Part shown: positions 3,090 to 63,445 of the stretch, piece after piece
Layout: each line of letters begins with the position of its first letter
How positions within the stretch are numbered: the stretch's first letter is position 1
Program-made: the position numbers and the translations under genes
NCBI RefSeq assembly: GCF_003967015.1
Contig: NZ_AP017560.1
Location: forward strand, 1,922,001 to 1,986,000
Direction of reading: 5' to 3'
Source of the DNA: Pseudanabaena sp. ABRG5-3
Lineage (GTDB): Bacteria; Cyanobacteriota; Cyanobacteriia; Pseudanabaenales; Pseudanabaenaceae
Length of the DNA: 64,000 bases
Notes under the pieces: generated by a model
The model's input: the letters and a program-made list of their open reading frames with translations, nothing else
The model's database searches: none
Told to the model about the DNA's origin: nothing

Positions 3090-3334
3090 AGGTCAAGCTG
3101 GAATAACTACCGTCCTAGATGTATTTGCCTAGGTAATAAAAGGATTCCCTGCAATTGTAACGAGCGATCGTTAGTTGAGAAAATTCAACCTTATATATAC
3201 TTTCAGCATCGTAATTTTAGCACTTTGAAATACCAAAACGTAAGTGTACTAACCGCCTTAAAAATAGAAGGTTCTCTATAACAGTGAAAGTTTTGCTTAG
3301 GTCACGTCAGTTCGGGTTAAGCTAGCAAATTTTA

Positions 3335-3423
3335 AAAGCCCAAAAGTAAAAGCCTTGCCTAGCAAGGCTTTTACTTTTGGGCTTTGAGAGAAGGTTTGCA
3401 TAGCAAACCTTCTCTCAAAGCCC
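3335..3423. repeat. Family-B double palindrome sharing one arm
   Basis: Two perfect hairpins overlap. The first (3335-3385) has 24-bp arms and loop CTA; the second (3379-3423) has 21-bp arms and loop ATA. They share GGGCTTT at 3379-3385, so only one can be fully formed at a time. The unit is bracketed by GTTCGGGTTA (3310-3319) and TATCCCGAAC (3433-3442), near-perfect inverted ends. Related copies: 23748-23850 and 51026-51115. Confidence 0.75.
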
Positions 3424-3463
3424 GTTACAAATTATCCCGAACTCGTGTTAGGTCATAAAACTC

Positions 3464-23446: not shown

Positions 23447-23665
23447 TTATGTCGTCTTCAAGGGTACTTTAAAGAAAAACTTTACAAGCGCTCTTGATGG
23501 TGTTTTAAGGTGTTTTTTGAGTAAAGATTCAAAAACACTCTGCCATTATAGCTTAAAAGCCTTACAGATATGTCGAGACCATCTCAGAATAAGTTTTTAT
23601 GTACCTCCAGTAATCGTGTAAAAAAACGTGAGTTCGATATAGCTATTTGCACTATAAGAAGCACA

Positions 23666-23745
23666 GCGCAAATAGCGAAAAATGGTAAGAAGCACTAAGT
23701 GCTTCTTACCATTTTTCGCTATTTTTTTAACTGACGTTGAAAAAT
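23666..23745. repeat. Family-C hairpin repeat, copy 1
   Basis: A perfect 27-bp stem with a single-base loop (23671-23725) is bracketed by GCGCAAATAGCG and AACTGACGTTGAAAAATA. The copy at 25570-25647 has the same flanks and the same AAATGGTAAGAA arm. Confidence 0.75.
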
Positions 23746-23747
23746 AC

Positions 23748-23850
23748 AAGTTCGGAATAAATTTAAAACGGTCTTTGAGAGAGGGTTTGCGTAGCAAACC
23801 CTCTCTCAAAGACCAGCAGCAAAAGCCTTGCTAAATATGGCTTTTATAAA
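23748..23850. repeat. Family-B repeat, copy 2 (inverted, partly decayed)
   Basis: Starts AAGTTCGGAATAAATTT, contains the 18-bp stem GGTCTTTGAGAGAGGGTTTGC/GCAAACCCTCTCTCAAAGACC (loop GTA) and then AGCAAAAGCCTTGCTAAATATGGCTTTT, a decayed version of the second palindrome. It corresponds to the reverse complement of the unit at 3335-3442. Confidence 0.65.
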
Positions 23851-25090: not shown

Positions 25091-25561
25091 ATGAAAATCT
25101 TAGGAATCGACCCAGGCTTAGCAATTGTTGGATTTGGCTTAATTGAAGTAGAAAAACCTGCTTCCCCAAAACTATTAGAATTTGGCACGATCGTTACACC
25201 CAAGCAGACACCGATTGGCGATCGCCTGAAAACTATTTATGAGGATATGCACACGCTGATTGACCAGTTTCAACCTCAGGTGGTGGGGATGGAAAAATTG
25301 TTCTTTTACCGAATGGGTAATTTGGTAAATGTTGCTCAAGCGCGAGGTGTAATTGTGTTAGTTCTCAATCAGCACGATATTGAACCGATTGAGTTTTCAC
25401 CACCACAGATTAAGCAAGCGCTAACAGGTCATGGTAATGCTGATAAAACTGATGTACAGGAAGCGGTGAAGCGGGAATTAGGGCTAGATAGTATTCCTCG
25501 TCCCGATGATGCTGCCGATGCGATCGCCGCCGCTTTAACTTGTTGGCTTATTAGTGGTTAA
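25091..25561 (+). CDS. ruvC: Holliday junction resolvase RuvC
   Basis: RuvC cuts Holliday junctions during recombination. The 156-residue protein has the four acidic catalytic residues: Asp7 ([16 protein letters not shown]), Glu68 ([14 protein letters not shown]), Asp140 and Asp143 ([13 protein letters not shown]). The start is ATG 25091; an upstream ATG at 25034 in the same frame would add 19 residues that precede the conserved first strand and are not needed. It is a single gene; ruvA and ruvB are not nearby, as is usual in cyanobacteria. The stop abuts a MITE-like element. Confidence 0.95.
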
Positions 25562-25716
25562 GTAGCTGGGCGCAAATAGCGCCAAATGGTAAGAATCGCC
25601 AAGCGATTCTTACCATTTGGCGCTTTCGTGGAACTGACGTTAAATATAAAAACCAAAAACCTGTAGCGCGTGCGCCACAGGTTTTGCTCTAGTTCTTAAT
25701 ATTGCAAATAGCTGTA
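25560..25716. mobile_element. MITE-like element interrupted by a family-C hairpin
   Basis: The left end AAGTAGCTGGGCGCAA (25560-25575) and the block from TAAATATAAAAACC to the right end near 25716 match the 102-bp element at 48720-48821. Between them lies ~65 bp with a perfect 22-3-22 hairpin (25578-25624) and the flank GGAACTGACGTTAAATATA, as in the family-C copy at 23666-23745. It looks like one repeat inserted in another. The inner palindrome of the host element is 25656-25685 (AAAACCTGTaGCGC). Confidence 0.6.
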
Positions 25717-25721
25717 GATTA

Positions 25722-26273
25722 CTATCCATTTAATGCCAAGGCTTCAGTATTAATGGCAATATTAATGGCAATCGGATGGCTCAGGTCTAAATCAGGGGGA
25801 TTTTGGGCGAGATCGGCGATCGCTAAACCAGTGACAGGATGAATCCAATCGGCGGCGATTTCGGCTAGGGGTAAGAGGACAAAGGCGCGATCGCTCATTC
25901 TGGGATGTGGTAAGACTAATTCGGGCGAGTCAATGCGGCGATCGCCATACAGCAATAAATCAAGATCGAGGGTTCTGGCTCCCCACCGTTCGCGGCGTTC
26001 ACGTCCAAAAATTTGCTCTATATAAAATAAAGCACGTAATAGTTGTAGCGGACTAAGAATAGTTTTTAAAATTGCACAACCATTGATGTAGTCAGGCTGT
26101 GGGGCAGAATTTGGCAAAGTAATTGCCTTGGTGCGATACCAACGCGAAACTCTAACCACCTCTATTTCAGGATGATTAGCGAGTCGGGCGATCGCTGCTT
26201 GGACAATTTTTTCGGAGTCCCCGATTTCACTGCTCAGGTTACTACCGAGGGCGATCGCGCAAAGCTCTATCAT
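25722..26273 (-). CDS. folK: 2-amino-4-hydroxy-6-hydroxymethyldihydropteridine pyrophosphokinase (HPPK)
   Basis: HPPK transfers pyrophosphate from ATP to 6-hydroxymethyl-dihydropterin in folate synthesis. Family signatures: CAIALGSNLSSEIGDSEKIVQAAIARL at the N-terminus, VSRWYRTKAI, YINGCAILKTILSPLQLLRALFYIEQIFGRERRERWGARTLDLDLLLYGD (with the catalytic R-W-G-x-R-x-[ILV]-D-[ILV]-D-[ILV] box), and LVLPHPRMSDRAFVLLPLAEI. At 183 residues it is slightly long because of the C-terminal tail (DLSHPIAINIAINTEALALNG). It is a single gene with ATG start at 26273. Confidence 0.95.
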   Translation of the reverse strand: MIELCAIALGSNLSSEIGDSEKIVQAAIARLANHPEIEVVRVSRWYRTKAITLPNSAPQPDYINGCAILKTILSPLQLLRALFYIEQIFGRERRERWGARTLDLDLLLYGDRRIDSPELVLPHPRMSDRAFVLLPLAEIAADWIHPVTGLAIADLAQNPPDLDLSHPIAINIAINTEALALNG

Positions 26274-27924: not shown

Positions 27925-28026
27925 AAGTAGCTAGGCATAATTAAAAACCAAAGTCAAAAGCTGTGGCGCACGCGCAGCGTGCGCCACAGCTTTTGGGGTT
28001 TTATCTTTAATTGCGCCTAGCTACTT
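27925..28026. mobile_element. 102-bp MITE-like element (AAGTAGCTAGGC ends), copy A
   Basis: The 21-bp ends (27925-27945 and 28006-28026) are inverted with 19 of 21 matches; they begin AAGTAGCTAGGCATAATT. Inside is a perfect 18-bp stem with GCA loop (27956-27994). The copy at 48720-48821 has the same length. Confidence 0.7.
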
Positions 28027-48699: not shown

Positions 48700-49250
48700 A
48701 GTTGATCTCTTAGGTATCCAAGTGGCTGGGTGCAATTAAATATAAAACCCCAAAACCTGTAGCGCACACTGCGCGTGCGCTACAGGTTTTGGCTCTATTC
48801 TTTAATTATACCTAGCTACTTAGTTAGTTATTTCGGTCATTTTTTAGATTGAGGATAATACACACAAAATACGCACAAAATACCAGTGAGCATAGAGTTT
48901 TGTGTAGATGTTTTGGTAGAGATACCTTGTATTAGATGATTTATATGTTGCTCTAACAACATCCTAAGTGATGACTTTAGCAGGGGCGTTTGCAAATCAC
49001 GATGGAATGCGATCGCAATCACAAGAGGTGATATCTGACATCACTGGCAATCATCGCAAAAAGTTTGATGATGTTGTTATTGAGTTAATCGCTCATGGGT
49101 AAAGTTCACCCAGTCGATTGAGTTGATAGTAGGAAGTCGCAATCATAACTTCTGCTGGAAAATTCGATCATAGAAGTTGAGCTTTAGGATTTTAGTTTTG
49201 ATTTATCAATTTCATTGAACGCAGTTAGAGAAAGCAGCATCGAGGCAGTT
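48700..49250. other. 551-bp gene-poor stretch
   Basis: It begins with a 102-bp MITE-like element (48720-48821). A plus-strand frame 48971-49102 (43 codons, MTLAGAFANHDGM ...) and a minus-strand 61-codon frame at 48837-49022 overlap each other; neither resembles a known protein, so I do not call them. The last ~100 bp should contain the promoter of the secreted protein at 49251. Confidence 0.5.
48720..48821. mobile_element. 102-bp MITE-like element (AAGTRGCTRGG ends), copy B
   Basis: The 21-bp inverted ends (48720-48740 and 48801-48821) match at 17 or more positions; inside is an 18-bp stem (48750-48767 with 48775-48792) around a 7-nt loop. Equal in length to the copy at 27925-28026. The right half matches 25641-25716. 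Confidence 0.7.
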
Positions 49251-53428: not shown

Positions 53429-56104
53429 ATGCAACCAACTGATCCGAAAAAATTTACTGAAAAAGCATGGGAAGCGATCGTCAAATCGCAAGAGGTCGCG
53501 AGACGATCGCAACATCAGCAACTCGAAGTTGAGCATTTAGTAATGGCACTCTTGGAGCAGGAAGAGGGCTTGACAACGAATATATTCACAGCGATGGCAG
53601 TGCCAATGGCAAGGGCGCGGCGACAGGTCGAGGAGTTTTTGCGCCGACAGCCACGTGTGGCAAGTCCAGAACAGTTGTACTTAGGACGTAGCTTAGAGGT
53701 GTGGCTCGATCGCGCCGAGGAAAGCCGTAAGAGCTTTGGTGATGACTTTATGGCGATCGAGCATATGCTCATCGGATTAGCGGATGACGATCGCCTCGGT
53801 AAGCGTTTATATCGCGATTTGAGTATCGATCGCAAAAAATTAGAAGAAACGATTAAAGCAGTTCGTGGTAGTCAGACAATTACTGACCAAAATCCTGAAG
53901 CTAAGTATGCGGCTTTGGAGAAATATGGGCGCGATCTGACTGAACAAGCTAAAGAAGGTAAGCTTGATCCTGTGATTGGTCGTGATGATGAAATTCGGCG
54001 AGTAATGCAGGTGCTATCTAGGCGCACAAAAAACAATCCTGTATTAATTGGCGAACCGGGGGTAGGGAAAACAGCGATCGCCGAAGGATTAGCCCAACGC
54101 ATTATTCGCGGTGATGTTCCTGAATCCCTCAAAGACCGTACAATTATCAGCCTTGATATGGGTTCTCTAATCGCAGGAGCCAAATATCGCGGTGAGTTTG
54201 AGGATCGACTGAAGGCAGTCCTTAAGGAAGTGCTCAATTCCGACGGCAAAATTGTACTGTTTATTGATGAGTTACATACGGTTGTGGGTGCAGGAGCCAC
54301 ACAACAGGGGGCTATGGATGCGGGGAACTTGCTTAAACCAATGTTAGCGCGAGGGGAATTACGTTGTATTGGTGCGACAACCTTAGATGAATACCGTCAA
54401 TATATTGAGAAAGATGCAGCTTTAGAACGACGCTTTCAACAAGTTGTTGTCGATCAGCCCACAGTAGAAGATACTATTTCAATTTTGCGCGGACTCAAAG
54501 AACGCTATGAAGTTCATCATGGGGTGAGTATTTCTGATTCGGCACTTGTCGCAGCAGCAACCCTGTCTAATCGCTATATTACCGATCGCTTTCTGCCAGA
54601 TAAAGCGATTGATCTCGTTGATGAATCAGCAGCAAAGCTAAAAATGGAAGTAGATTCACGACCATTGGAACTCGATGAAATTGATCGCCGCCTGATGCAA
54701 TTGGAAATGGAAAGACTCTCCTTGCAAAGAGAGGGTGGTTCTACGCCCATTGAACGGACAGAATCTGAAGGTAAAGTAGTCTATAAAACCAAGAGTGGTA
54801 AGGCAGTCCAAGATCGCCTTGATCGCCTTGACAAGGAAATGAATGAGTTGCGCGATCGCCAAATTGCCCTTGATGATCGTTGGCAACAGGAAAAAGATAC
54901 CATTGATAATCTGCGAACTCTGAAAGAGCAGATCGATCAAACCAAGTTACAAATTGAACAAGCAGAACGGGAATTTAATCTTAATCGGGCAGCAGAACTT
55001 AAATATGGTAAGTTGACGGAATTAGAGAAAAATCTCGATGAAGCTGAATTAGAACTGAATCGCGCAAGGGCTGATGGTTCGATTTTATTCCGTGAGCAAG
55101 TTACTGAAGATGATATTGCTGAAATCGTGGCACGCTGGACGGGGATTCCGCTTAAGAAATTATTGCTATCCGAACGTCAGAAATTACTGACGCTAGAAAC
55201 ACATCTGCATGAGCGCGTAATTGGTCAAGAGGAAGCTGTCAGCTCGGTAGCATCGGCAATTCGTCGCGCCCGTGCAGGGATGAACGATCCTAATCGCCCC
55301 CTTGGTTCATTTCTGTTTTTAGGACCAACGGGTGTTGGTAAAACGGAACTAGCCCGCGCCCTTGCTGAATTTTTGTTTGATTCCGATAGCTCAATGGTAC
55401 GCATTGATATGTCGGAATATATGGAAAAACATTCCGTATCGCGCTTAATTGGTGCGCCCCCCGGTTATGTAGGCTATGAAGAAGGCGGACAATTCTCAGA
55501 AGCAGTACGTCGCCACCCTTACTCTGTGGTACTTTTCGATGAGGTCGAAAAGGCTCACCCCGATGTGTTTAACATTCTCTTGCAAGTGCTTGACGATGGA
55601 CGCATTACCGATAGTCAAGGACGCTTAGTCGATTGCAAAAATACTGTGATCATCATGACTAGTAATATTGGTAGCGATCGCATTCTCGAAGTATCCAAGG
55701 ACTTGCCGACAGATAGTGATGGTGACTCACACTATGACGAAATGCGCGACAAAGTCCTAGATGTTCTTCGCAATCATTTCCGCCCAGAATTTCTGAATCG
55801 GATTGATGAGACGGTAATTTTCCATGCGTTGCGCCGTAACGAGATTCGCTCGATCGCGACATTGCAAATTAAGCGTATTGAGAATAGATTAAGCGATCGC
55901 AAAATTTCTCTTAATTTAAGCGAAGAAGCAAAAGATTACATCGCGAATATTGGCTATGATCCCTCCTATGGCGCACGTCCCCTGAAACGAGCAATCCAAA
56001 GGGAAATTGAGAATCCGATCGCCACCAAAATCCTTGAAGGAATATTTGGAGAAGGTCAGACAATCTCCATCACTGTAGAAGATGAAAAGTTAGTTTTCAA
56101 TTAA
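53429..56104 (+). CDS. clpB: ATP-dependent disaggregase ClpB
   Basis: ClpB, with DnaK, rescues aggregated proteins. The 891-residue chain has the N domain ([41 protein letters not shown]), AAA1 (Walker [13 protein letters not shown] near 208), the middle coiled coil (~400-540; [29 protein letters not shown]), AAA2 (Walker [15 protein letters not shown] near 632; [35 protein letters not shown]) and the C-terminal D2-small domain. Cyanobacteria often have two clpB genes; which this one is cannot be told here. The IGL/IGF loop for ClpP binding is not seen, as expected. Confidence 0.97.
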
Positions 56105-56123
56105 CGTGAGTTCGATAACGTCA

Positions 56124-56150
56124 TTTGCGCGGCGCGAAGCGCCGCGCAAA
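56124..56150. repeat. 12-3-12 hairpin after clpB
   Basis: Arm TTTGCGCGGCGC, loop GAA. Preceded by CGTGAGTTCGATA, also found at 23628-23640. It lies between the convergent clpB and NurA genes. Confidence 0.6.
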
Positions 56151-56156
56151 TAGCTA

Positions 56157-63209: not shown

Positions 63210-63282
63210 GCCCCCATCGTCTAGAGGCCTAGGACACATCCCTTTCACGGATGCGACGGGGATTCGAATTCCCCTGGGGGTA
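63210..63282 (+). tRNA. trnE-UUC: tRNA-Glu (anticodon TTC), copy 1
   Basis: The 73-nt sequence folds as a cloverleaf: acceptor GCCCCCA/TGGGGGT with discriminator A, anticodon stem CATCC/GGATG with loop CTTTCAC (TTC anticodon), T stem GGGGA/TCCCC with TTCGAAT loop. CCA is not encoded. Glu-tRNA(Glu) also feeds tetrapyrrole synthesis by the C5 pathway in cyanobacteria. A terminator (63294-63326) follows. Confidence 0.97.
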
Positions 63283-63372: not shown

Positions 63373-63445
63373 GCCCCCATCGTCTAGAGGCCTAGGACAC
63401 ATCCCTTTCACGGATGCGACGGGGATTCGAATTCCCCTGGGGGTA
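63373..63445 (+). tRNA. trnE-UUC: tRNA-Glu (anticodon TTC), copy 2
   Basis: Base-for-base identical to 63210-63282 over all 73 nt; the sequences between and after them differ. It has its own terminator (63450-63490). The two genes are in tandem, 90 bp apart. Confidence 0.97.

What the first reader, a model, noticed from the sequence alone, without database searches (positions are those of the whole stretch)
25560..25716. One palindromic repeat nested inside another
Alignment of 25560-25716 with 48720-48821 shows the same left end, then ~65 bp absent from the other copy, then the same right half. The extra block holds the 22-bp stem and AACTGACGTT flank shared with 23666-23745. This gives a relative age order for two repeat families and shows that both have moved.
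Basis: seen in the sequence. Interest (0 to 1): 0.5.

Follow-up and report, generated by a model that had tools for sequence, protein, structure and literature searches.

The report
One tiny transposon inside another
In a cyanobacterium, a short hairpin-bearing mobile DNA element landed inside an older copy of another short mobile element and then lost one of its ends; this is ordinary traffic of tiny transposons, but unusually easy to read.

Summary
Window 25559-25716 is a ~104-bp inverted-repeat element (family A) interrupted by 64 bp from a second family (B).

Two corrections. (1) The block is not a whole B. Full B is ~111 bp with ends ACGTGAGTTCGA/TCGAACTGACGT, two hairpins and a 6-8 bp target duplication. 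Here its left end and half of hairpin 1 are missing; the joint lies in GGCGCA, present in A and B, so a deletion after insertion is likely (inferred). No target duplication remains here, but intact nested cases exist at the same A site, TAAATATA: full B in A in G002, whose G000 ortholog is A alone, and full C (a relative of B) in an A in G000. (2) The order holds for this copy, not for the families: full B copies are more diverged than the A copies read, and one locus suggests A inside C. No transposase partner was found. New members of a known kind (MITEs); modest interest.

The parts
25559..25574 (+). left end of the family A element (TA target, then AGTAGCTGGGCGCA); its TA and first base form the TAA stop of the ruvC ORF
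25569..25640 (+). left-truncated family B element (right arm of hairpin 1, hairpin 2, right end GAACTGACGT); 25569-25574 is shared with A
   Evidence: by alignment to G002 the extra block is 25575-25638
25578..25624 (+). 22-bp stem with 3-base loop (hairpin 2 of B)
25641..25648 (+). TAAATATA, the A site used by other B/C insertions; here the right-hand copy of the inferred target duplication
25641..25716 (+). rest of the A element with its hairpin (about 25656-25685) and a decayed right end
48720..48821 (+). uninterrupted A copy
27925..28026 (-). uninterrupted A copy
23626..23737 (+). B copy with both ends (112 bp)
   Evidence: L014
25034..25561 (+). ruvC (PF02075), ends at the A element
25722..26273 (-). 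HPPK gene (PF01288; folK), convergent neighbour

Best explanation
A is a non-autonomous inverted-repeat element (about 104 bp, TA target duplication) that inserted at the end of ruvC before G000 and G002 split. Later, in the G000 lineage, a full B element (about 111 bp, 6-8 bp target duplication, target mostly of the form TA..TA) inserted into A's AT-rich shoulder at TAAATATA. Then a deletion between the GGCGCA of A's left end and the GGCGCA of B's first hairpin removed B's left end, half of hairpin 1 and the left target copy, leaving the 64-bp block. Shown: the families, their ends and target duplications, the uninterrupted sister locus, and intact nested cases at the same site. Inferred: the deletion step, the direction of the change at this locus, and that unknown transposases act in trans.
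For: Sister locus in G002 with A but no block. A ends: 200 hits at up to 1 mismatch against 0 for the reversed pattern; empty site with a single TA for L046 in G002; joined flanks of 5 of 9 A loci match G002 contiguously. B/C: exact target duplication of 6 bp or more in 38 of 53 elements of this genome, against 52 of 2756 mismatched flank pairs; 31 of 50 exact duplications (relatives included) are TA..TA. C empty site in G002 (L088/L210). Intact or half-intact nested cases at A's TAAATATA: L209 (G002, full B in a complete A; its G000 ortholog is A alone), L286/L267 (G000, full C, 8-bp duplication), L268 (G021, C, one junction). C at A's ends with duplications TAAGTA and TACTTA: L277, L112. The truncated joint coincides with GGCGCA.
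Against: In the window copy only B's right junction survives. Two genomes show this locus, so precise loss in G002 is not strictly excluded. A is only an occasional target: of 72 joined B/C sites, 3 span an A match, 4 abut one, 4 are near one and 61 have none. The genus-wide junction patterns are rare: 5 hits in 26 genomes for the right junction, of which only the window's own is B in A, and 9 hits for the other, of which two are C in A (L267, L268), one is C against an A-like hairpin (L269), two repeat places, and the rest are not in A or were not read (L264). No autonomous partner was found.
Confidence: 0.83

Rival explanations
1. Same nesting, but the B fragment arrived already truncated, by recombination or template switching between A and a B copy at the shared GGCGCA, without transposition into this A.
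For: The left joint lies exactly in a 6-base sequence shared by A and many B copies; partial B copies occur elsewhere (for example L022, L023, L284, L285).
Against: The right joint is B's exact end at the same TAAATATA that L209, L286 and L268 use, which recombination does not predict.
Confidence: 0.12
2. The long form is ancestral and G002 lost the block.
For: Only two genomes show this locus.
Against: G002 reads as a normal A through the site, and the block is absent from the other 45 A matches.
Confidence: 0.03
3. The hairpins are ordinary terminators between two convergent genes, and the likeness to other copies is chance or shared function.
For: The block lies between the convergent ruvC and HPPK genes and folds strongly.
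Against: Sharp ends, target duplications, empty sites and dispersed copies. A terminator role may still exist as a by-product; it was not tested.
Confidence: 0.02

Closest known systems
Bacterial MITEs in general (review PMC10969869; passages seen)
   Same: Short, non-coding, inverted ends, target duplication, AT-rich intergenic targets, strong hairpins, many copies
   Different: No autonomous insertion-sequence partner identified here; B and C carry two internal hairpins each
Nezha, a cyanobacterial MITE (Zhou et al. 2008; only its reference-list entry seen)
   Same: A small inverted-repeat element of cyanobacteria (by its title)
GTAG-tagged REPs (PMC3733652; abstract and passages seen)
   Same: Dispersed palindromic repeats, known in cyanobacteria; A's ends begin AGTAG
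   Different: REPs are 20-40 bp with a tag at one end; A is about 104 bp with inverted ends and a TA duplication
Small dispersed repeats of Nostoc (recalled, not found in the library)
   Same: Small mobile repeats of cyanobacteria
   Different: Recalled as much shorter; not tested

Membership tests
MITE | terminal inverted repeats | tested here: met
   A: AGTAGCTGGGC/GCCTAGCTACT; B: ACGTGAGTTCGA/TCGAACTGACGT; C: ACGCGAGTTCGGG/CCCGAACTGACGT, all imperfect
MITE | target-site duplication | tested here: met
   A: TA, exact at L046. B/C: 6-8 bp, exact in 38 of 53 elements against 52 of 2756 control pairs. Not visible in the window composite itself
MITE | short, non-coding, many copies | tested here: met
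   About 104, 111 and 145 bp; 200 A-end hits against 0 control; 64 B/C left-end hits against 5 control. No ORF of 100 aa or more lies within 25562-25721
MITE | moved by a related autonomous transposase | tested here: inconclusive
   None of 18 DDE_3 loci of the genome is flanked by A ends; no true pair of ends 600-3500 bp apart in the fetched loci, which are mostly about 3 kb or less
REP/REPIN (GTAG super-family) | 20-40 bp stem-loop with an unpaired GTAG tag at one end | tested here: not met
   About 104 bp, AGTAG-type motif at both ends within inverted repeats, TA duplication
IS630-type MITE (for A) | TA duplication and ends shared with an IS630-type element (defining features recalled) | tested here: inconclusive
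   TA met; no DDE_3 locus of this genome shares the ends

The most novel reading that the evidence does not exclude
A elements are recurrent landing pads: the B/C transposase recognises A's palindromic body with its AT-rich shoulders, and not only a TA..TA site, so that one MITE family offers another a harmless place to insert and layered composites are built (L336 and L286 carry several families).
Probability: 0.12. Interest if true: 0.5.

Novelty: new member of a known kind. Interest (0 to 1): 0.34.

Why it matters
It gives ends, target rules and ordered events for several mobile repeat families of Pseudanabaena-like genomes, with filled and empty forms of the same loci in two close genomes, so that target choice, decay by short-repeat deletion and the missing transposases become testable. 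It changes no general view of bacterial transposons.

Tried and rejected
Autonomous partner: 18 DDE_3 loci were checked for A ends; one (L252) has a plain A copy about 1 kb from the match, none is flanked by A ends. A search for paired ends 600-3500 bp apart in the loci fetched by then gave, for B/C, one false pair (two B copies of the window, listed twice) and none for A. Plasmid collection: no match for C or A. Rfam at gathering thresholds: two tRNAs in the window, nothing at the repeats.

An early reading that B begins at GCGCAA was dropped when the left end ACGTGAG was found. Boundary AACG..CGTT with shorter duplications was dropped for ACG..CGT because L316 and L324 have G after CGT. I do not claim that B/C hit A more often than chance: the elements sit mostly in intergenic DNA and no intergenic null was computed. 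Intended empty sites that were not clear: L084 (G002 holds a C-like element there), L075 and L006 in G021 (aligned as if empty, but 73% identical); for L033 the script aligned to another A copy, so that its empty site rests alone.

Literature searches: (listings and abstract starts), passages of two papers. One search (Pseudanabaena with 'miniature inverted-repeat transposable') found 0 papers; subscription journals are mostly not held.

Full report
What was checked. The window is G000:C1:1922001-1986000. The closest named relatives of the ruvC protein beside the site are Pseudanabaena genomes, so the organism is a Pseudanabaena-like cyanobacterium.

Family A. One search lists 46 A matches from loci fetched (the best matches; only 40 of 187 candidates were scored). 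Most run end to end: TA|AGTAGCTGGGCGCAATTAAATATAAAACCCC, stem-loop, GGCTCTGTTTTTTAATTATGCCTAGCTACT|TA. The end pattern has 200 hits in the genome (96 and 104) against 0 for the reversed control. At L046 the sister G002 has the empty site with a single TA. Of 9 A loci whose joined flanks were searched in G002, 5 match contiguously (L043, L040, L032, L046, L033), 3 are split as if filled (L051, L036, window 48720), and the window copy at 27925 gave no match. At L043 the G002 site reads TG, and at L032 and L040 the flanks next to the site differ.

Families B and C. Full B is 111 bp in most copies: ACGTGAGTTCGATA, hairpin 1 (CGCYATTTGCGC...GCGCAAATRGCG), hairpin 2 (such as AAATGGTAAGAATCGC...GCGATTCTTACCATTT), then TCGTCGAACTGACGT. 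C is 145 bp in most copies, with nearly the same ends and two other hairpins. One search found 59 rows in this genome and 22 in relatives with both ends (up to 2 mismatches each); 6 and 1 rows longer than 160 bp were dropped as joined neighbours, leaving 53 and 21. Of the 53, 38 have an exact duplication of 6 bp or more; pairing flanks of different elements gives 52 of 2756. With relatives, 50 of 74 are exact; 44 of the 50 are T..A and 31 are TA..TA; C is mostly 6 bp (21 of 31), B mostly 7 bp (11 of 14). Some relatives' copies are orthologs of copies in this genome, and the two L224 rows overlap, so the 74 are not all independent. One C copy (L088) is absent at the matching place in G002.

The window locus. 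G002:C1:4616300-4618200 reads ...GGTTAAGTAGCTGGGCGCA|GTTAAATATAAAAACC... where the window has 64 more bases; both have an A whose right end is decayed. A's TA is 25559-25560 and its first base completes the TAA stop of ruvC. In 11 of 11 further relatives whose ruvC ends were printed the protein ends CWLIA, two residues shorter in effect, and the stop is not made by an A end; one of them (L104) does have an A-like hairpin shortly after the stop. The block has B's complete right end (GAACTGACGT, to 25640) and starts in the right arm of hairpin 1. The left joint lies in GGCGCA, found in A and in many B copies (others read CGCGCA). The simplest history is full insertion at TAAATATA and then deletion between the two GGCGCA; the deletion is inferred.

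Other nested cases. L209 (G002) is a complete A with both ends, holding a complete 111-bp B at the same site and in the same orientation; the duplication is TAAATATA/TAAAAATA, one mismatch. Its ortholog in G000 (C1:4474462-4475244) is A alone, flanks 97-98% identical. L286/L267 (G000) holds a complete C with duplication TAAATATA; the two ends of that A are broken by sequence of a further family. L268 (G021) has a C at the same site with only one side of A left. L336/L077 (G000) has a C without its left end against the same shoulder of A; its other side is not clearly A. L269 (G004) has a C against the shoulder of an A-like hairpin, one side only. At A's ends, L277 and L112 have a C with duplications TAAGTA and TACTTA made partly of A, and L016 probably a B likewise. 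When 72 joined sites (53 own, 19 of relatives) were scanned with an A profile at E 0.01, 3 spanned a match (L209, L286, and L290, which is an A-like element hit at another place), 4 abutted one (L005, L268, L112, L302), 4 were near one (L009, L076, L016, L315) and 61 had none; the window composite, L336, L269 and L277 are cases read by eye outside that count.

Order of the families. L005 and L302 (B or C followed at once by A, sharing TAACTA) can be read in either order. L039 has the left end of a C directly against A's left end, which suggests an A inside a C remnant. Median divergence from consensus is 6.7% for A (n=35 of the 46), 11.7% for full B (n=8) and 4.1% for C (n=37); all three samples favour well-kept copies. 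So nesting orders single copies, not families.

Hairpins. The A stem keeps 97.5% of 600 cells paired over 30 copies. Changes on both sides occur at 5 of 20 pairs (9 of 500 shuffles as high) in 23 cells (shuffled mean 7.8, 0 of 500 as high); the number of further pair types is no more than shuffled (12 against 11.3, 206 of 500). Relatedness can inflate these measures. In L209 the left arm next to B is the reverse complement of the right arm, unlike its G000 ortholog, as if one arm had been copied from the other (template switching between inverted repeats; abstracts seen). This could explain why stems stay perfect in diverged copies; it is one case.

Verdict. The elements behave as MITEs in each feature tested, except that no transposase partner was found.

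Noticed in passing
window 3304-3448 (-): Complete C element (145 bp) with exact 6-bp duplication GACCTA (L316).
   Followed up: partly
window about 23747-23830: Remnant of a C element directly beside the B copy at 23626-23737 (seen).
   Followed up: no
window 56104-56155: Truncated B (left end and hairpin 1 only) starting at the stop codon of the 891-aa ORF 53429-56104.
   Followed up: no
L336; L286: A further palindromic family with ends like TATAGCTAC...TAGGACAAATCAAAACCC lies in the right arm of A in L336 and on both sides of A in L286, giving composites of three families.
   Followed up: partly
L209 against G000:C1:4474462-4475244: One arm of an A hairpin seems to have been rewritten as the reverse complement of the other arm.
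   Followed up: partly
L033, L019: A inserted at a TA inside what look like terminator hairpins: its two flanks are near reverse complements of each other.
   Followed up: no
L096/L202 (G022): A full B beside the HPPK gene, directly after the right end of another such element, apparently an insertion independent of the window's.
   Followed up: no
L104 (G017): An A-like hairpin shortly after the ruvC stop in another relative.
   Followed up: no
window 63210-63282 and 63373-63445: Two tRNA matches with the same score, starts 163 bp apart.
   Followed up: no
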